From the NCBI GenBank assembly GCA_014773175.1, contig VXCM01000450.1, positions 62,001 through 126,000 of the forward strand: 64,000 bases of DNA, written 5' to 3'. A program made the translations under genes and the position numbers. The DNA comes from Lucifuga dentata. Taxonomy: Eukaryota > Chordata > Actinopteri > Ophidiiformes > Bythitidae. The notes under the pieces were generated by a model. It was not told the origin of the DNA. It worked only from the letters and a program-made list of their open reading frames with translations, and searched no databases. Positions 14,540 through 63,431 of this stretch are shown here, one piece after another (the stretch's first letter is position 1; every line of letters starts with the position of its first letter).

Positions 14540-15069
14540 CCATTTCACAACATGCGCGCAGGATGAAGCCGGACGCAGCAGCAGCTTCGCCCTCAGGGCT
14601 TTTGCTCCATGCCTCGACTATAACCAACAATTTGGATTAAACGCGCGGATGAGAGCAATTACTGGACTTCATCTGTCACATTATCTTTATTGTCTGTCCG
14701 GTCGAACCGATAGTCAGATGAGTTGAGCAATGGCTGAAGAGATCTGAGCGTTAGACAGGCGCTTTAAATGAATCCAAACTAAAGAAAACCATTTTCATTT
14801 CAGTGCGCATCAGACTCCAAGAGCCTTCAGGTGGACATCATGTATAGATCGGCAGATTTGACACTCATAAAAACCCCGAGTGGGTTTTATTTCGGATTTC
14901 TGTGACCCACGGGACGCGTNGATTTGACACTCATAAAAACCCCGAGTGGGTTTTATTTCGGATTTCTGTGACCCACGGGACGCGTTTTTGGGGAAATTTC
15001 GGAGTGTGTTCCCTCGCTCCTGTTCGCTTTGCTCCGGTTCCTGCAGGACTCCAGAGTCGCGGAGAGCCC
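14540..15069 (+). promoter_or_regulatory. RGMA: Probable RGMA promoter and 5' UTR region
   Basis: Just upstream of the start codon the sequence turns CpG-containing (CATGCGCGCAGG near 14,551, AAACGCGCGGATG near 14,639, ACGCGT near 14,984), unlike the AT-rich upstream DNA. The start codon context is GAGCCCATGC. No TATA box decides a start site. An assembly join with a 65-base duplication falls inside (14,855-14,985), so the true 5' UTR is shorter than shown. Confidence 0.45.
14855..14985. repeat. 65-base direct duplication around a single N (assembly join)
   Basis: Bases 14,855-14,919 are repeated exactly at 14,921-14,985 with one N between (14,920). This is what results when two overlapping contig ends are placed side by side instead of merged. 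It lies in the RGMA 5' leader. Confidence 0.9.
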
Positions 15070-29110: not shown

Positions 29111-29122
29111 AACTTTTTTTTT

Positions 29123-29247
29123 CTTCCTAGAGCGTTTTTTAACTTGTAAAGAAGTAGTTTAAAAAAAAAAAAGATCTCTTTTTANCTTCCTAGAGCGTTT
29201 TTTAACTTGTAAAGAAGTAGTTTAAAAAAAAAAAAGATCTCTTTTTA
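29123..29247. repeat. 62-base direct duplication around a single N (assembly join)
   Basis: Bases 29,123-29,184 recur at 29,186-29,247 with N at 29,185. Both copies contain an A12 run, a likely cause of the unmerged overlap. Confidence 0.9.
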
Positions 29248-31006: not shown

Positions 31007-50037
<19,031 letters not shown>

Positions 50038-50576
50038 CGTTATATCCTAAAAATCTTGAATAGGATGAGTTTTTATCCTGGTATTTTGTCAAAAAAAAAA
50101 AAAGTTGGAGGAAGCATGAACTATCATACAAGTCCCACAAGATAGCCTTTGCTCAGGAGGCAGAATAAAGACAGACGGTGCGACACGACTTAAGAAAAAT
50201 ACATTAAATGGAAAAAATTAACGGTCATTATTTACATCGCTAATTTAAAAGGGCTATGATAATGACAGGTGCTGTTCCAATTAGTTAAATATCCAGCCTT
50301 CAGCTTTCAATATTGTCCAAGGATCAAGCCGCATGCAATTAATTGTAACTGCGTCATCAGTTGAGGGATTAGAAAAATAAGATTTAGAGATGAGAAAATA
50401 AGTAATTTATGCACTACACAATGTAAACATACCAATTCAAAGTGAAGCAACGCGACAATCTATAAATGAAGTTAGATTCACGTTCGCTGTATCACAGGGT
50501 TTAAATACGTATCCGATTCGAATAAAAATAAAGAGTAACAAAAAATAATAAATTAATGTTAAATTACAAAGGAAAC

Positions 50577-50940
50577 CTTGATTGAAAAAGGTGATAGGCC
50601 TTTACAGTCTTCATCTGCTGTCAGACTTTGGGCGACAGAGGCGAGCAGCAGCACACTAAAAATGGAGGCGCGCCATGGCTGCCAGAGCCCTGTATAGAAA
50701 ACAACGACGAGCGCTCGCCCAGCATAGACGGCTCCAACAGCTCGAAAAAACAGTCCTAAATCCACGAAAAAATGCCCAAATTTCCCTTAATCTCTAATTA
50801 TTCGATCACAAACGTTAAGTTATAACAAGAAAGAAGCGGTCTCGGTAGAAAAATATGAGAAACGGTCTAAGGAAAGCCCAGAGCAGCCGTCCCGAGGCTG
50901 AGCCGCCATGAAGTGCTCCTTCCTGGCTCTGAAAGCTTTG
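50577..50940 (-). promoter_or_regulatory. CHD2: CHD2 promoter and non-coding first exon
   Basis: This GC-richer patch holds CpGs and, on the - strand, ATGGCGGC (YY1-type core) near 50,908. The leader could end at AATCAAG|GTTTCC (50,577), joining the start-exon acceptor at 50,047. Several ATGs in it start short upstream frames, one of about 68 codons from 50,765 that runs past the proposed donor. The transcription start is not determined. Confidence 0.5.
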
Positions 50941-51120
50941 CCTTTGATTGACGTTATTTCCATTTACACCACACTCAGGTGATGTGCAAGTCCCACCCCT
51001 TTTATTAACTTTAAAACACATTTTTATATTTACTTACATATTTTTTCAGTCTCACACCCTAGCCTAAAAGTGAAATCTTTCTTCCCATCTTTAATACTTA
51101 AGAATACTGACGTTGAAAAA

Positions 51121-51150
51121 ACTATATATATATATATATATTTTTTTTTT
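51121..51150 (+). repeat. (TA)n then poly-T
   Basis: About ten TA units followed by ten T, in the CHD2 upstream spacer. Confidence 0.85.
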
Positions 51151-51857
51151 TGCACACTATGCATCACTTCCTGTATAGACAGGAAGCAGAACGACCAGGA
51201 GCCATTTTGGAGTCTTTGGAAACCATTTCAGTTCAGATCACATTCCAATAAACTTTGCAATTTGTCCCACAACAAATGTGTATTTTTCAGCTGGTTTTAT
51301 TGTTTAGGTAATGATTTAAAAATGGGACTGATTAAGGCAGAGTGGTGCATATTAATCAGCCATTCTCCTCAAATCCTGTCAATTTGTTGAGGAATTAATT
51401 GATAAAGAAGTTCAAATGTGAGAGTGATGGCAGCCAGATGCTCCATGCCACGATACCCAGTATTAAACAAATGCACCGCTGCAGTCTTTCATTTATATGG
51501 GAACAGTTTTACTAACTTTGAACAAAGTCAGTTCAAACCAAAGTAATTTATCACGTGATTAACTATTAAAAACCAATTGAGTTATTAGACTTGCACTTTT
51601 TAAAAATTTTACGCCAAATATCGTCTTGTATTTACAGGTTAAGAGGAGCTATTTTAAATGTTAACCGTCCTTAGCTAGCGTAGGGAATAGCTAATGAATC
51701 AAAGCCAGGGAAAAAATGCGAGGACATAGACTTTATTTAAAAACAACATTTGAATATCAAATGTACAAAAGCTGATTTTTTTTTCCCCCCAAAAAATAAC
51801 AGTTTAATTTTTCAACGAGTCCACTATACAGCCAGGGTTCCAGTGTCCATGTTGTCA

Positions 51858-51883
51858 AAAAAAAAAAAAAAAAAAAAAAAAAA
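51858..51883 (+). repeat. Poly-A run
   Basis: About 25 A on the + strand within the proposed last exon of the upstream lncRNA. Confidence 0.85.
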
Positions 51884-53382
51884 TTCCAATTGCTGAAAAT
51901 CCCATCAGAAAAGGTTTCATCTTGTTAAAATCTGGCTAACTGCCAAATGACTTGCCATCTTCACGTTAAACAACGCTGTCTTCACTTCAGTAATATCCAG
52001 TTGAATGGAGTCTTGATAGGATAAAAAAGAAGGAAAAGTTGTAAGCCCACAGTGCAACTGAAACTGAACAACGATTCACTATAAGTAAAAAAAAAAAAAG
52101 AGGCATGCTAGACTAAAAAATAAACAGCGCTGAAGTAACATACGTGGCTAGCTTTAACTTATGTAAGCTAGCATTGTGCAAGTATCCTACTAAAACATCA
52201 TAGTATTAAGACACTACTACTACTACTGTGAAAAAGTATAAAAAGCCTAAACAAAGTGGTCAGTTCTAGAAATTGTAGCTAGAAGACAATGTGCCAACAA
52301 AATAAATAAAATGCAACATGAATGAGACCGAGGAGCATTACAACACTACATTTCAACTTGAAACTGGCTATCACACAGCCAAATATTGATTAAGATTAAT
52401 TAATAAAGTCCAATCAGATGTGATGCAACTTTATTATGGAATAGCTAATAACTAATAATGCTGCATTATGGACACTTTTCAACATTAGTTTAAAAATACA
52501 GTGCAGTGCTATGTTATAATGATAAATTCTGTAGGATTTTTGTTGGATCTTTTATTGTGAAATGCTTTAATGAATCCAAAACAAGTAGGACAATTTAAGT
52601 TTGAACTTCATAAAAATTCCAAGAAGCTGCAGAAAATTCATCAGCTGTCCACCAGGGTTTTACTGTGAGCTTTATCTAGAGTTACCTAAACTATCTCACG
52701 TATTATGCTAAGAGTTGAAACTGACACAAATTGAACTGAACCAAAAAAATGAACAAATATGCAACAGTTGATTCAATTAAAACAAAATCATACCCTGGCC
52801 TGTGAACAAACAATTCAAGATGCAAATTCAGACCCACTCCTACAACAACTTCGAATTGCAAAAATGACACCACAGTCACCAAAGCAGAAACAGGAATGAC
52901 CACCAGACGGACAACAACCTCCAATTACTATTTGTGCAACCCATAGAAAACCCGGCTGATTTCATACATCTGCTGTTCAGAATCAAAAACAAAAAATGTT
53001 CTCATAGGGAGGGTAAAAATACAAATGCTATTTGTAAAATAATCTTTAACCCCTCTGGAATCTGTTATTTTTGCTGATTTTTGGAGATTTTCTTTTTAAT
53101 TTGTAGAATCCTCAAAAGAAAATTTGACAACTTTCTATAATTTAAGCCTTTTTATAAGCATCTTTTAGATTGGATTTTTCTTTACTAGAATGAAGAATTT
53201 TCTTCAAAAATTGATTTGAGACTACAGAGGGTTAAGTGGTACTTGCCATGTTCTATCATGTTTTCAGCTTTAAGGTCAAAAAACAAACATTACATTTTTT
53301 TACCCCTCAAAAACCTAAGCGTGGAGCAACAGCTTATATGCATATGTTTCTAGTAAATACCAAGAAGAGGCAACATTTACTA

Positions 53383-53554
53383 TCTACATTAGTGAGAAAG
53401 CCACAGTGCAAAAAGAACTCATTTCATTAAAAAAAAAAAATAGCCAAATGAGAAAGTTGTTACACAANTCTACATTAGTGAGAAAGCCACAGTGCAAAAA
53501 GAACTCATTTCATTAAAAAAAAAAAAATAGCCAAATGAGAAAGTTGTTACACAA
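53383..53554. repeat. 85/86-base direct duplication around a single N (assembly join)
   Basis: Bases 53,383-53,467 recur at 53,469-53,554 with N at 53,468. The copies appear to differ only in the length of an internal A run, which points to homopolymer miscounting at a contig join. Confidence 0.85.
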
Positions 53555-56500
53555 GTGCTAACATTAAACAGTTTGCCATCTTACACTTTGAACTGTCCAT
53601 TTTGTTATACATTGTGCCAACTATCGTCAAGACCCTTAGAACCAGTCTATCACTTGCTACTATAGTGGTAAATATTACCAGTGAATGTGGAGTAATGTGT
53701 ACTGCAAATACTGGTAAATTATTGCCAACATGTATGGAAATGTGTATGAATTATTGGGATCATATCATATAATCTCTTCGTAGTCAAATATCAATTTTCC
53801 CAACATTTGCAGGTTTAGTAAGTGTATAGATGAAGCACTCTGGTCAAAATATGAAAAACTTACAGAGCTGTCTTCTTTTTTGAAGCTTGAAACCCTTCAT
53901 ATGGCTCCATGTTTCAACTGTGTAACAGATAAAGAAAAATGAATTAAATCCAGAGTAACAAACCCCTGACCAGTGCATGAAAAAGATAATTTTGAGTAGG
54001 ATAAGAAAGACTTTTTCTCTTCCAAACAAAACAATCAGAAGACCAAAAAAAAAAAAAAAAAAANAAAAAAAAAAAAAAAAAAAAGGGGGGGATGTGACAG
54101 ATGTATCTTTTGCAAAGTGTGTTGTGTTCTGTTAAATTTATTGTCCATTTGTTTCAAGCCTTTGGGTCTTTTCTTTAAAATATTGGCTGCAGATGACAAA
54201 CATGGCCAAAATAATCATGTATCTCAAGAGGCGATCATTTGCATCTGAGGAATGCACAAATTCTATCACAAAAAAAGTTCTAACACCCACAGTAAAAACA
54301 GATATTGATCAACAGCTGATGTTCTGCACCTGCAACTAGATATGTAGCTATTTATTATAGGCCATGTCAACGTAATGATTAACTGTTTTAAATAAATATT
54401 TTGTTGCGAAAAACACATTTCCAAAGTAATGCCGAGTTATTTTGGGAAACTCACTTCTCCCAGAAACCTAACAGTAGCTCTGAACCCAACCTAAAATGAA
54501 AACAATTTTTTTCCTTATGTTATCAAAATTACCATATATTTTTCAATCTAAACAGAATGTGAAATAACCTAATTTGATGGAGGTTAAGTAGTGTTGGCTA
54601 GAATTTGAGATTTCAAACATACAAACTTGAGTATTACTTCTTGCTACAAAGCTAAATATCTTTGAATGCAGAGTTATTTATTACAGAGTTATTACACATC
54701 ATGAAATAAGTGTCACTACTTTAAGCTTCCTAGATGTCTCAGTTACTAAATGCACTTACTGACAGCACAGCTACGATTAAGAAACATTACATCACTCAAA
54801 ATATTCTCAAACCATTTTACAATATATGGGAGGTCAATATATTATCCACTAATACATGGAAGTAAATTGTTATAATTACAATTGGAAAAATGGAATTTAA
54901 TGAGATGGGTGACTAATATAGGTAGCATCTTTTTTTTCTAGACAGAAAGAACAATATTCATGATGCATAATTGGGGGAACGTGCTGCACTTTTCACAAAG
55001 CCACATACATGTCTGTACATGGCACTTGTATTTTAACTATGAATTGAGTGCTGCGTTCCTTGGCATCCTTTATAATGATGCTGAAGGACCATACTGCTTT
55101 GTTTTGTTGTAGCTCTGATGTGAACAGTTTACTGATGTGTGTTTCACAACTTTCACAACTCTGCAGCAGCTGTACTCTCAGTCCTGTATGTTTGTCTGTG
55201 TAGGGCTGCCTGACACTTGTTGGGTTTGGGGGTGTGTGTGTGGTAAATTCATGTTCTCCTGGGAAAATCTAAATCTTGATAGTTCACTGTCAACAAGAGC
55301 AACTTACCACCTACTGAAAATCATGTTTTTTGCTGACCTCCACTGGTTTAAGTTCTCACCTTGCTGCAATGATTTAAAAGTGTACTGAGAATGTGTTGAG
55401 TACACACTGACAACAGTGTTGTATGTGTTACAAGTGAAACGAAGGTCACGTCTGACCAAAACCAACAGCGATGCTCCTTATGGTCGGAGAAGCAACACAG
55501 TTGAAACTTAAAACCAGAAGAGTTCAGTGAAACAGGGTTTTTCTGCTTGGTGTAAGTTACCCTTTCAAAGAAAAAATAAAATTAAGAAAAAAAATTAAAG
55601 CACGCCTATTTCTTTTATGTTCTTGTTTTGTGTTAAATGTGACTAAGCATGTCAGTGGAATTTGGCTGCGTGGTATCCATCTGTACAAAGTTTTACCTTC
55701 TAGCATTTATTACACATCAACAAAAGTGTAAATTTGAAAATGCAAAATAGTTAAATTTTCATGGTTCACATTGGCCACAGGTAATTATCAGTTATTGTTA
55801 TCATTCCAGTAATTCCAAATCGCAATGGGAGGACCCCATAGCATAAAACTATAAATATGCTTGAGCAGTTCTGCAAAACGCTCTATTCTTAATCATCTAC
55901 TAAGAGGCAAAGGCACATGCAAGCCCCTCAAAATAAGAAGTTAACTGGAGACAAATGGCCAAAGGGACAATCTAAAAAAATGCAACCAGTCACACAATTT
56001 TTGACCAAGAGTATGGAAATGTGGGAGGACATGGGGGGTGGGGGGTAAATGAAACTGTATAAGAATTCTGATAGGTACACTTGGCCAATCTGTCTTCACA
56101 AACACAGTAGGGTTCAGGGCATCTTTTTGACCATAAAAACCAGCTTTTAGTATGTGTGACCCATAACCAATTTGTCCAAAGTAAGCCATCAGCTTGAGTG
56201 TTGATTTAACATGGCTGTAGCTTAAGGCATTATTACATGAGCCAACAAGTAAATTTGCCCAGGTGGGTGCCTCAACAGTCTTGTACAATTAGTGTGAGGT
56301 AAAAACAAATGCTATTCACCTGTAAGCTAAGGTATTTCTAGCAGTGTCTATTGAAAGCTAACACATCATCTCGAAGCCCTCCTCTTGTGGAGCAAAGTAG
56401 GCTAGCGCCGACTAACAAAGCCAATTGGTGCTAGCATTCAATGGCTACGATGTTCGCTTGCTCTGGCTGACTTTTAAGCTAGGCACTAGGTTAGCACTGA

Positions 56501-57118
56501 CTTAGCCCCTCGTAGCGGGAAGATGGGCAGCTCTGCCTTGACACAATCTTCACGAATGTCAGCCAATATTTCTGGGGATGACGCTGTGAGAGAGTTCTCG
56601 ATTGTGAAATACCAACCAAAAAATGTTTGAAAAAGAACTTAAGTTTTGCTGAATATTTATGTGAAGAAGTATTTCACTTATTGTTTAACTAGATACTATT
56701 ATTGTTAATTTCAAACAAGAATTTTGATTGAGCAAGACACAGAAGACGACATCAAATCCATTGTTAGATTTTGTCGCATTTGAGCACAACTGTATTGTAA
56801 AAATAAATTGTATTAACACATGTTAAATGTGTTAAGTACCACTAAAAAGCTACCATAATATAAAAATTTAAGAATTTACATGCTATTTTTAAACACAAGG
56901 TATGATTAATCCCAAACTGTTGATATTTCATAATTATATACAGATGTGTTGTACATCTGTACATAATGTGTCACAGACTAGGGGGCAGGATAGATTGTGG
57001 GTTTTTTAACAATTGACATTTTGCTAAGTTAAAACAATCCATGAAAAGAATTTAATACATTGATGAAATACAAGCTAGTTCTAAAGATATTTATTCTATC
57101 TTAAAAATGTATACTTAC

Positions 57119-57181
57119 AGGATTCTCGTAGGGTCATCCCAATCCTTCAATTCATGCTTTCTTGGTTGCTAAATGTCAACC
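57119..57181 (-). ncRNA. CHASERR: CHASERR-like internal exon
   Basis: 63 bases between acceptor CTATTTTAAAG and the near-consensus donor CCT|GTAAGTAT. It contains GCATGAATTGAAGG. Confidence 0.45.
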
Positions 57182-57327
57182 CTTTAAAATAGGAAAATAC
57201 AAGGTTCAGAGGAAAAGCTGACAACAGCACACCCTACTGGCTGCACATATATATTTAGTAGAATATCAACAACTTGCGGAATTGCTAAAACATTGAAATC
57301 ACACCCGTAACTGCTTGATAAACTTAC

Positions 57328-57393
57328 CATTTTGCTTGGGTCAGATGATCCACTTTCTTCGTTGACCCATTTGTTAAACATGAAAGGAAATCC
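57328..57393 (-). ncRNA. CHASERR: CHASERR-like internal exon
   Basis: 66 bases between acceptor TTTTATAG and donor ATG|GTAAGTT. It ends CAAGCAAAATG, so the AAAATGG motif spans the donor. Could also be coding in one frame, but has no family match. Confidence 0.45.
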
Positions 57394-58850
57394 CTATAAA
57401 ATATCAAATGAGATTATGATTACTTTTGTTGGTATATGCAAAAAAATCTTAACTCTCATATGCATAAGCAACAAGCTTAAGTAAGGACTTTTGAATAGCT
57501 TTCCTAAATAAGATTTTGAATATATGTTCTAATCTTATTAATATATAAGAAAAGTCATTAATATGTGGTTGCATATGTTGGAAGGGAATTGTTTCATATT
57601 TGCATGATTTGGTGGTTTAAAATGTGACTAAATTTGGCCTCAAATGTAAAATTATGTTTTAGTAAAAAAAAAAAAAAAAAAANAAAAAAAAAAAAAAAAA
57701 ACAACCTATCTTGAAGAGTGTAGAAGACATTTTGTACTGTGCAGGGTGGTACACTACTAATCCCTTGGATTCAACATTACAGATTAAAATAGAAGTATCT
57801 TTAATAAAAGGTTGTACATTAGCTGTTTTATTTGCCTGTATGTAGTAGGTGTCTTCACATTTAGATAAATCAACAACTTTAGGAAAGAGTCCATGACATA
57901 AAGAGGATTTCATTTCTGTATTTAATTTTATTACATTTTTTATTCCCTAAAATTTAACATACTTCACATGTAGTGATGCTTTCTAACATAAAATGTTTCC
58001 TAACATGTCTTGCTGATATAATGTAACATGGAAAAGTAAAATTAATCTAAATATTTAATTTACTTCTGCATTCTGTACCTCAAAGGGTTAAAAGCCAACA
58101 CCCTATTTTATTTTTCGAAGTATACTTAGGCTTTTTAGATATTTGGAACCATTATCAGACAAACAAATTCACTAAAGTTTTATGTATAATGTATACAAAA
58201 AGGTAAATATTGCCAATTGACATATTTTGAGCATTTTTACAACTTCTCTCAATTTATTCAAACTGTTTTAAAATAATAGATATTACACATCCAACACTCA
58301 ATGAAATCTTGGAGACAACATTTGTACACTCTGAGGTATATTTATGTAAAAACTGATAAAATGTTAATTTTATGTCATTTCAATTCGATAAAATCCCCCA
58401 AAAAACAAATATCGAGAAAATAAACAAAATTACAGTCAATAACATTGTATTGATGTCATTCATCTACATACAACATTTCAAAAGAACACATTAGATTGTT
58501 TTTGGTATTTTCATCGAACAAATTCAGACAAGGGCATTTGCCCTTTCAAGGACAAAGCAAATTTAAAATGCGTAGGCTGAAATATCTTCAAATAGATCGA
58601 AAACAAATGTGTCTATCCAAATCTAAACAAAGTTAACTCGAAACATAAGTCATAATCATGTTATCTTGCTATACTGGGACACAATTTAATGCAATTTACG
58701 CTCTAAAACCCGTTTTCTTTATTCTTGGCTGACAACACCATGGCCATTTTTACAACACTGCGTCTAACTGTCGTTCTATCCACCATATTGCCCTACAAGC
58801 TTCACTCGGTTTTTACAGCTATTATCGCATGATTACTCTTAATTTCTTAC

Positions 58851-59110
58851 CCATTTCCACGGCCGTGACTATCCAACTTCATCTGCCGGGGCCAGCGTCG
58901 TGTTTTTTGGTGGTTTTCGCCGTTTTGGTGGGTGTTTGGGCCGCATCGTTCCGCCCGTCCTGCTCCTGGCTCCTGTCTGCTCTCTCTGCTGCGCGTGCTG
59001 TCCTGCTCCGTGCCTCCGCCTGAGCTCTTCTCCTTCATCGGCTCTGCCCACTTTGCTTCAACGTAACACAAGCTCCACTTCCTCTTCTACACATTATACA
59101 AGTATGAAAC
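58851..59110 (-). ncRNA. CHASERR: CHASERR-like exon 1 and promoter
   Basis: A CpG-containing GC-rich island in otherwise AT-rich DNA, ending on the - strand at the donor GTAAGA. An open frame of 74 codons exists but is dominated by Arg/Glu/Gly and reads equally well on the other strand, as expected for GC-rich DNA. The 5' end is a guess. Confidence 0.4.
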
Positions 59111-59999
59111 CCGCCATACTGGTCTCACCAAAATCAGATCGCCAGGAACAAAAGTAACAACAATTATGTTTACAGGGAGCGAAACTATAACGATCATTCG
59201 CATTAATCAGTCATCGTTTAGGTAATTTCCATTTTATTTAGCACAAAAATTCCAAATATATTCCATTTACAAACATACGAAAATCAGTAAATCCTCCCAT
59301 TTAAGAAGCTGGAACCAGCAAAGATAAATGGCTTAAACTGATCAACCAGTCATTAATATTGTTGATTAATTTTCTGATGCTTTTGTTGATTTTATAACCA
59401 GTTAATTTGTGTAATTAACCAGCATTAAAGCAGATATTTTTCATGTCTTTTTTTTTTTTTTTACATTTATGTAAAATTATAGTGGATGTGTCTTACCAAA
59501 TACTAGGTTAATACTATTTATCATCCACCACAGGCTCTTTCTTGCTTTAGTGTCGCTTCTGCATATATCTCACATGCAGGGCTATTAATAAAGAAGTTTT
59601 ACTTTGTACTATATATGATGTGCAGTACGTGAGACGTTTTTGTTGTAGTTTTAATGTTTAATTGGACTAGAAGTTACTATTTACAGAATACAGGACATTT
59701 TTCATGTCAATGAAAAGTTGAATAACTCACTGAATTAAACAATTAACACTCTTAATTTACTTGAAAAATGGACACCAGTCAATCTCAATGCAATGTCAGT
59801 ATCATTCATTCTTATAAATTAGTCACTTAAAAGCCTGTGCTGTCTGAGACAATATGATACAGTCAGTGACATTTTCAATTAATGGGTATTTCAACAAAAA
59901 TAAACGAATAGAATCAGAAGTCTGATTTTAAGTAACAAACTAAGCATCTTTATTTAGGTGTTCAGTGCAGCTTTTGTTGGACAACCAATGGTATGTACT

Positions 60000-60125
60000 C
60001 CACCCCCATCACTCACCAATGAGATGATAGATACAACCACGCATGCGCTGTGTAGTGGAAGATTTCTTTAAAAAGATCCTGAGCCTAGCAACAGGAATTT
60101 CCTGTTGAGGCCTCGGTAGGTACGT
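60000..60125. promoter_or_regulatory. Promoter-like block between CHASERR and FAM174B
   Basis: Holds an NRF1-type site ACGCATGCGCTG (near 60,039), an X-box-like half CCTAGCAAC (near 60,085) and ACTCACCAATGAG, in an AT-rich region. No exon is visible beside it. Confidence 0.3.
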
Positions 60126-60534
60126 GTTGAGGTGATGATGAACCTCTTAATCACTGGATGTGTGAAAACACATGAAACTACATATGTACTAAATGTGCCA
60201 CAAAATACTTCCTTTGCGCATCAGATTGTATCAGAATGTTTACAGACGGAGTGTTACAATGTTTTTGTACCACCATTGTTGCAAATTTGAATACATTTCA
60301 ACAGCACCAATGCATTTCTTGTTTTCCATTTTGTGTGTCCTGTTGTCTGTAGTGATGCTATTTGAAATGATAAAGATCATATTTTAAGTTTTACTCTGAC
60401 ATTTAACTATGACTCATCTTTTCCACATTTTATTTGACAGACTCTTCTCATATGTAAGTGGCTTGTGGTTCAGTTAAACATGATGCAATATGTTTCTGGA
60501 TCTATCTATGTCGGTCTATCTGTCTGTCTGTCCG

Positions 60535-60535
<1 letters not shown>

Positions 60536-60589
<54 letters not shown>

Positions 60590-60602
60590 GTCTATCTGAA
60601 TN

Positions 60603-60657
<55 letters not shown>

Positions 60658-60669
60658 GTCTATCTGAAT
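60536..60669 (+). repeat. (TATC)n microsatellite with an assembly join
   Basis: Long TATC array with N at 60,602; both sides of the N end CTGTCTATCTGAAT, so the array is probably counted twice. Confidence 0.9.
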
Positions 60670-62959: not shown

Positions 62960-63232
62960 CTAAACCAAAGCACTCAAAGAGTTTTTTGAATTTTTATATG
63001 AAGGAGCAGCAGTGTCAGCAATTATGCGTGCGAGAAGGACAATGTACGAAGAGGCCCTGAATGCAGCAGGAGTCCAATACCGCTCCTCTTCAGCAGGAGG
63101 ATCAGCGGACAGACTGCAGAGCTCTTCCGGAGCTGGATAATCCTCATCCTCATCTAAACCAGGTCCTAATGCATCCAGGAAGGATCTAATACAACTCACC
63201 TCAAGGACAACTCTTTTTGGAAGCAAAAGCAA
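62960..63232 (-). other. Unassigned 90-codon open frame
   Basis: The - strand frame contains LGPGLDEDEDYPAPEELC and AAFRASSYIVLLARIIADTA, with balanced amino-acid use unlike the AT-rich shadow frames nearby; but a perfect donor GAG|GTGAGT lies inside it near 63,199, and the + strand frame (MYEEALNAAGVQYRSSSAGG) is also protein-like. I do not recognise a family. It may be an exon of an unplaced gene, a transposon piece, or chance in a GC-richer patch. Confidence 0.25.
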
Positions 63233-63431
63233 GTTACCACCTAGAAGTCTGTTAGGAAAAGCTTAAACGTGTACAAAAGATGGATGTTTGTCTTTCCATT
63301 ATTCTTTACTGTATAAATAACCTAATCTAACAGCGATAGCGGATTCTCTATAATGTGACAGCTGTTGTCGCATTTCTTTAATTTCTAGAAACTACTGCAA
63401 GAATATCCTGCCCAAATTGTACCCCAGCACC

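What the first reader, a model, noticed from the sequence alone, without database searches (positions are those of the whole stretch)
51715..59110. Candidate fish CHASERR: tandem lncRNA upstream of CHD2
The - strand upstream of CHD2 has its own GC-rich start, strong splice sites at 58,851, 57,393/57,328 and 57,181/57,119, a poly-A signal near 51,730 and no convincing protein. The position and strand equal those of mammalian CHASERR, a cis repressor of CHD2 dosage. If real, it extends the regulatory pair to this fish and gives a defined exon map.
Basis: partly seen in the sequence, partly recalled or inferred. Interest (0 to 1): 0.75.

Follow-up and report, generated by a model that had tools for sequence, protein, structure and literature searches.

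The report
Cave-fish CHASERR lncRNA beside chd2
This is most likely the cave-fish copy of CHASERR, a non-coding RNA gene already known across vertebrates that sits just upstream of the dosage-sensitive gene chd2 and, in mice, turns it down; the public annotation of this fish seems to list it as a small protein.

Summary
The - strand block at 59.1-51.7 kb is very probably the CHASERR orthologue of a percomorph fish, almost certainly the Cuban cave brotula Lucifuga dentata. A separately made annotation therefore uses junctions 58,851/57,393 and 57,328/57,181. That protein is the only hit in a 5.77-billion-sequence search, so the frame looks non-conserved. It resembles the non-conserved ORF thought to trigger NMD of mouse Chaserr.

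Published CHASERR features are present: tandem position, CpG-rich first exon, two AAGAUG-purine motifs 224 and 186 nt before AAUAAA, and a YY1 core at the presumed start (also at the chd2 promoter).

The downstream exons are not settled; I add candidates for exon 4 and the last exon. The family is already described in zebrafish and every vertebrate its authors examined, so fish CHASERR is not new. No transcript data could be consulted. Cis repression of chd2 in this fish is inferred from mouse.

The parts
59111..59117 (-). YY1 core motif ATGGCGG (motif recalled) at the presumed CHASERR start
   Evidence: Three ATGGCGG in the 64 kb on both strands: 59,117 (-), 50,909 (-) and 28,057 (+). Mean 0.03 per shuffle of this promoter stretch. 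A predicted YY1 site lies at -4 from the human LINC01578 start and YY1 binds that promoter by ChIP (PMC7718957, passages).
58851..59110 (-). Exon 1 (5' end is a guess), CpG-rich, holds the start of the 88-codon ORF
   Evidence: GC 0.56, CpG o/e 0.87; donor U1 rank 2 of 500 but matrix rank 77; deposited protein joins it to exon 2.
57328..57393 (-). Exon 2, 66 nt
   Evidence: Both borders used by the deposited protein; internal-exon score rank 5 of 4250.
57119..57181 (-). Exon 3, 63 nt; holds the ORF stop
   Evidence: 5' border used by the deposited protein though the acceptor is weak (rank 177 of 466). The 3' border 57,119 rests on the donor alone (U1 rank 10 of 500; matrix rank 49). Internal-exon score rank 633 of 4250.
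53864..53917 (-). Candidate exon 4, choice A (54 nt; alternative 5' border 53,965); low confidence
   Evidence: Seen by eye; acceptor rank 29 of 466, donor rank 170 of 500 by matrix, U1 rank 36 of 500. Internal-exon rank 242 of 4250 (128 with 53,965); not better than chance.
55360..55451 (-). Candidate exon 4, choice B (92 nt; alternative 3' border 55,308); low confidence
   Evidence: Best internal-exon score of the region, rank 1 of 4250, but the best score is no better than shuffles.
51715..52011 (-). Candidate last exon; 5' border uncertain (52,078, 52,057 or 52,011)
   Evidence: Acceptor 52,078 rank 2, 52,057 rank 10, 52,011 rank 119 of 466. All three choices keep both AAGATG motifs and the poly-A signal.
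51956..51961 (-). AAGATG motif 1a (followed by G)
   Evidence: [quoted passage not shown]
51918..51923 (-). AAGATG motif 1b (followed by A)
   Evidence: two AAGATGR in the last exon, reached by 0.08% (start 52,011) or 0.12% (start 52,078) of 5000 shuffles.
51732..51737 (-). AATAAA poly-A signal
   Evidence: one of 17 on this strand in 51,000-59,300.
50600..51000 (-). chd2 promoter / first non-coding exon region (inferred), CpG-rich, with YY1 core at 50,909
   Evidence: GC 0.49, CpG o/e 0.85; first coding chd2 exon starts 50,037.
31010..50037 (-). chd2 coding exons
   Evidence: tblastn with a recalled human CHD2 covers most of the protein in order, residues 1 to 1828; an ATPase piece matches CHD1 best in the PDB (no chain named CHD2 among the 60 shown of 75).

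Best explanation
The block is the CHASERR gene of this fish: a spliced, polyadenylated non-coding RNA made from its own CpG-rich, YY1-marked promoter about 8 kb upstream of the chd2 promoter and on the same strand, ending roughly 0.7-0.8 kb before it. Its likely action is that of mouse Chaserr: transcription and/or the nascent RNA lowers chd2 output on the same chromosome, with the AAGAUG-purine elements near its 3' end as the protein-binding part (DHX36 in mouse cells). A non-conserved ORF opens in exon 1 and stops in exon 3, which would send any exported copy to nonsense-mediated decay and so keep the RNA nuclear and short-lived. Shown here: sequence anatomy, absence of a detectable protein relative, and a separately made deposited model of exons 1-3. 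Inferred: transcription, exon 4 and the last exon, NMD, and repression of chd2.
For: Position: same strand, directly upstream of chd2, with rgma on the other side (RGM_C, E 1.1e-71) and a FAM174-like frame further upstream (E 1.4e-4, below the curated cut-off). Exons 1-2-3 joined give an 88-residue frame identical to LDENG_00104420 of Lucifuga dentata. No other relative of that frame at E<=10 in the 5.77e9-protein search, which saw 1 candidate, while rgma of the same window finds 345 at E<=0.001; no Pfam family. CpG-rich exon 1. Two AAGATGR in the last exon: 0.08-0.12% of 5000 shuffles reach this; only 14 of 2548 overlapping 300-nt windows on both strands have two, the windows over this very pair included. 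ARATGR 6 in the 740-nt model, mean 1.8 in shuffles, P 0.0065, against 14 in 6656 nt of introns. YY1 cores at this and the chd2 promoter. Predicted length 740-807 nt, inside the published 579-1313 nt.
Against: Splice signals in the block are no stronger than chance, and exon 4 has at least two competing candidates. The published motif 2 (AAAUGGA) is not in the modelled exons; its four copies in 51,000-59,300 lie outside them. AAGATG alone over the whole model is only marginal (2 against 0.43, P 0.067). The poly-A signal is one of 17. The last-exon model was drawn with the motif in view. No transcript, no second fish locus and no chromatin data could be consulted. The deposited annotation calls it a protein, and how it was made is not known to me.
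Confidence: 0.82

Rival explanations
1. A small protein-coding gene (LDENG_00104420, 88 residues) spanning exons 1-3.
For: It is deposited as such. The frame is longer than most frames in shuffles (88 against a mean of 53; 7.1% of 1000 shuffles reach it).
Against: No relative in any other species at E<=10 in a search that needs shared 5-residue words, no domain, poor start context with C at -3 and, if the RNA starts at 59,110, an overlapping upstream ATG; composition follows the CpG-rich exon. P 0.071 is within chance.
Confidence: 0.06
2. Not a separate gene: exons 1-3 are alternative 5' exons of chd2, spliced into its coding exon from a far promoter.
For: Same strand, no proven 3' end in between, chd2 first coding exon only at 50,037.
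Against: AATAAA with two CHASERR motifs upstream of it before chd2; separate CpG-rich chd2 promoter with its own YY1 core; mouse Chaserr is independent of Chd2 by TSS and 3' end data (PMC6841665, passages).
Confidence: 0.07
3. No stable gene: promoter-upstream or enhancer noise, with splice-like sites met by chance.
For: Splice scores of the block do not exceed shuffles or the + strand.
Against: A separate annotation found the same exon 1-3 chain, weak acceptor included; motif pair and YY1 core at the expected places; the gene was reported for every vertebrate its authors examined.
Confidence: 0.05

Closest known systems
CHASERR / Chaserr (LINC01578, 1810026B05Rik), including its zebrafish homologue
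   Same: Tandem, same strand, short gap to the chd2 promoter, CpG/GC-rich first exon, AAUAAA and AAGAUG-purine motifs near the 3' end, non-conserved ORF with its stop upstream of later junctions, similar predicted length, YY1 site at the promoter.
   Different: About 8 kb between the two presumed starts here, about 17 kb in mouse. The ORF is 88 codons ending in exon 3 (mouse: 117 codons ending in exon 2). AAAUGGA (motif 2) not found in the modelled exons. Exons 4 and 5 not settled.
SRG1-SER3 of budding yeast (tandem non-coding transcription repressing the next promoter; named in PMC6841665)
   Same: Works-like comparison only: upstream same-strand non-coding gene lowering the downstream gene.
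   Different: No kinship; SRG1's 3' end overlaps the SER3 promoter, whereas here the predicted 3' end lies about 0.7-0.8 kb before the chd2 promoter.

Membership tests
CHASERR lncRNA | Directly upstream of CHD2, same strand, within about 2 kb of its start | tested here: met
   chd2 on the - strand from 50,037 down; CpG-rich promoter 51,000-50,600; poly-A signal at 51,737. The exact chd2 start is not known.
CHASERR lncRNA | Five exons | tested here: inconclusive
   Exons 1-3 backed by a deposited model; exon 4 and last exon only candidates with rivals.
[quoted passage not shown]
   Exon 1: GC 0.56 (0.61 for 59,050-58,851), CpG o/e 0.87 against 0.38 and 0.36 for the window. The 200 nt upstream are not GC-rich (0.34) though CpG-dense (o/e 1.28).
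[quoted passage not shown]
   Two, at 51,961 and 51,923, followed by G and A, given the modelled last exon.
CHASERR lncRNA | AAUAAA at the 3' end | tested here: met
   51,737-51,732; weak by itself, 17 on the strand.
CHASERR lncRNA | AAAUGGA (in 11 of 16 published sequences) | tested here: not met
   Four copies in 51,000-59,300, none inside the modelled exons; not universal in the family, so not a defining feature.
CHASERR lncRNA | No conserved protein | tested here: met
   88-residue frame: only its own species in the 5.77e9-protein search, limited to relatives sharing 5-residue words; 55-residue frame over exon 3, exon 4 choice A and the last exon: no candidate; no Pfam domain in the 88-residue frame.
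CHASERR lncRNA | Sequence similarity to other fish CHASERRs | not testable with these tools
CHASERR lncRNA | Represses CHD2 in cis | not testable with these tools
   Needs an allele-specific knock-out.

The most novel reading that the evidence does not exclude
CHASERR keeps a decay-inducing ORF by position rather than by sequence: in mouse and in this fish a long, unrelated, non-conserved frame ends in exon 2 or 3, ahead of later junctions. That would make translation-coupled decay part of how the RNA is confined to the nucleus, held since the mouse-fish split through a CpG-rich, stop-poor first exon. Twin YY1 cores at the tandem promoters would further mean that one factor sets both the repressor and its target. 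Part of the lncRNA's 5' half may therefore be listed as hypothetical proteins in other fishes too.
Probability: 0.2. Interest if true: 0.5.

Novelty: new member of a known kind. Interest (0 to 1): 0.32.

Why it matters
CHD2 dosage is tied to epilepsy and neurodevelopmental disease, and CHASERR is a proposed target for raising it (PMC6841665, passages). A fish gene with the same layout and motifs but different sequence helps to separate what the RNA needs (position, AAGAUG elements, perhaps a decay-prone 5' part) from what drifts. In practice it corrects an annotation: LDENG_00104420 is better read as CHASERR than as a protein.

Tried and rejected
Splice-site strength as evidence: tested three ways (matrix from 25 chd2 junctions; U1 pairing; best internal exon against shuffles and the + strand). 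Internal exons with a GTAAGT/GTAAGA donor were 8 on this strand and 1 on the other (shuffle mean 4.2, P 0.053) at a lax acceptor threshold, and 4 and 0 (mean 1.9, P 0.127) at a stricter one. Of 29 chd2 junctions found, I dropped 4 (protein positions 22/17, 184/192, 388/400, 855/860) as ambiguous and took the second-best choice for 2 (603/605, 1564/1563) before training.

Exon 4: I first saw choice A (53,917-53,864) by eye, because of its GTAAGT. One search shows choice B (55,451-55,360) scores higher and that neither exceeds chance, so I do not claim a five-exon map.

Transcript evidence by way of proteins: a 55-residue frame across exon 3, exon 4 choice A and the last exon found no candidate, which does not help either way. 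An early reading of mine that the exon-1 frame stops in exon 2 after about 68 codons (first notebook entry) was a joining slip; it has 88 codons and stops in exon 3.

Structured RNA: no Rfam match in the window at gathering scores or up to E 1 in 50,500-60,200. Repeats in 50,500-60,200: mostly A/T runs, the duplicated scar at 53.4-53.5 kb and two short two-copy pairs at 79% and 83%; 25 of 38 inverted pairs were shown, all of them A/T runs or A/T-rich.

Literature searches on whether fish CHASERR is known: CHASERR with CHD2 (56 papers, 30 listed), zebrafish (20), medaka (1), teleost (3), LINC01578 (20), exon/haploinsufficiency/deletion (11). No listed title or abstract start was about this gene in Lucifuga; the search for Lucifuga dentata with genome gave 6 papers, of which I looked into one. 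Passages of PMC7764144, PMC11549340, PMC8524963 and PMC12644095 added nothing on fish CHASERR.

Full report
What is there. On the - strand, chd2 runs from about 51 kb down to 31 kb: a recalled human CHD2 matches most of it in order, and an ATPase piece matches CHD1 best among solved structures (60 of 75 matches shown, none of them named CHD2). rgma lies beyond it on the + strand (RGM_C, E 1.1e-71). A FAM174-like frame lies on the + strand at 63.35 kb (E 1.4e-4, below the curated cut-off). The order rgma - chd2 - finding - fam174b agrees with the human order as I recall it.

Species. The best named rgma relatives are percomorph fishes at up to 91% identity. No Lucifuga name stands among the 120 rows shown of 345; rows are 90% clusters with clipped names. 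The spliced 88-residue frame of the finding is identical over its whole length to 'hypothetical protein LDENG_00104420 [Lucifuga dentata]', on a 391,386-base contig. So the window is almost certainly from the Cuban cave brotula (taxonomy). Its draft genome VXCM01 and transcriptome GIAU01 are described in PMC7826195 (passages).

The observation. All named borders exist. I tested their strength in three ways. Against U1 pairing, donors 58,851 and 57,328 rank 2 and 3 of 500 and 57,119 ranks 10. As exon pairs, the block holds nothing that shuffled sequence or the + strand does not (best score reached in 68% of 60 shuffles; exon 2 rank 5, exon 3 rank 633 of 4250). So splice signals alone do not make the case. 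The deposited protein does for exons 1-3, since it reads through 58,851/57,393 and 57,328/57,181 and stops 50 nt before 57,119. The second of these acceptors is weak. I take that as a hint that the annotation leaned on transcripts, but I could not check how it was made.

Coding or not. The 88-residue frame has no relative at E<=10 except its own record in a search of 5.77 billion proteins, which found 1 candidate and needs shared 5-residue words; the rgma search on the same database gave 345 at E<=0.001. It has no Pfam domain, a poor start context, and a length that 7.1% of 1000 shuffles reach. [quoted passage not shown] Here the stop lies in exon 3, with one junction 50 nt on and, if exon 4 is real, another further down. 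By the usual 50-55 nt rule (recalled) this would be an NMD target only if a further junction follows.

CHASERR marks. [quoted passage not shown] Here: GC 0.56 and CpG o/e 0.87 in exon 1; AAGATGG at 51,961 and AAGATGA at 51,923, before AATAAA at 51,737. Two AAGATGR in the modelled last exon are reached by 0.08% (start 52,011) or 0.12% (start 52,078) of 5000 shuffles. Independent of my exon borders, 14 of 2548 overlapping windows of 300 nt on both strands hold two, those over this pair included. ARATGR is enriched in the modelled RNA (6 against 1.8, P 0.0065), with 14 in 6656 nt of introns. Against this, AAGATG over the whole model is marginal (P 0.067) and AAAUGGA is absent from the modelled exons.

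Promoters. ATGGCGG, the YY1 core (recalled), occurs three times on both strands of 64 kb; two are on the - strand at 59,117 and 50,909, in the presumed CHASERR and chd2 promoters, where shuffles give 0.03 and 0.02 on average. For human LINC01578 a YY1 site was predicted at -4 and YY1 binding shown by ChIP (PMC7718957, passages). The twin site at both tandem promoters was noticed after looking, so its weight is modest.

What is unsettled. Exon 4 may be 53,917-53,864 (or from 53,965) or 55,451-55,360 (or to 55,308); the last exon may begin at 52,078, 52,057 or 52,011. The poly-A signal is one of 17.

How it works. The mouse gene represses Chd2 only in cis; promoter or gene-body deletion, ASOs and GapmeRs all raise Chd2 (PMC6841665, passages). 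Of three antisense oligonucleotides against the conserved elements, two (alone or mixed) raised Chd2, and a pull-down that depends on these elements, with an RNA immunoprecipitation of Chaserr, points to DHX36 (PMC7798263, passages). The authors state that the exact mechanism is unknown. I carry this over to the fish as inference, at about 0.7.

Known or new. The authors found homologues in every vertebrate examined, with zebrafish RNA-seq in their figure (legend seen, figure not), and used a zebrafish sequence. So this is a new member of a known kind. What I add: the likely species, the deposited mis-annotation, the non-conserved ORF with its stop in exon 3, the motif pair, the twin YY1 cores, and a correction to the exon map.

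Noticed in passing
14855-14985, 29116-29247, 34549-34677, 38256-38379, 53382-53554: Near-identical 62-86 bp tandem pairs (97-100% matches). The one I read (53,382-53,554) has a single N between its copies, and frames over 14.9 and 38.3 kb carry an X: probably unmerged overlapping contig ends, an assembly scar. An earlier count said this of all five, which I did not check. The 53.4 kb one lies in the presumed last intron of the lncRNA.
   Followed up: partly
57664-57701, 54045-54084, 60515-60665: Single N in the middle of poly-A/T and GATA runs: repeat lengths there are unreliable.
   Followed up: no
51857-51883: A run of 27 T in the presumed last exon of the lncRNA (A on the + strand); could affect oligo-dT or stability assays.
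   Followed up: no
62960-63262: A 100-residue stop-free - strand frame near the FAM174-like exon, no Pfam match.
   Followed up: partly
56330-56620: A GC-richer stretch with GCTAGC-like pieces inside the presumed intron 3, seen by eye; origin unknown, possibly a mobile element.
   Followed up: no
32655-33357: Overlapping frames with the '[21 protein letters not shown]' type of sequence that I recall from fish repeats, in a chd2 intron.
   Followed up: no
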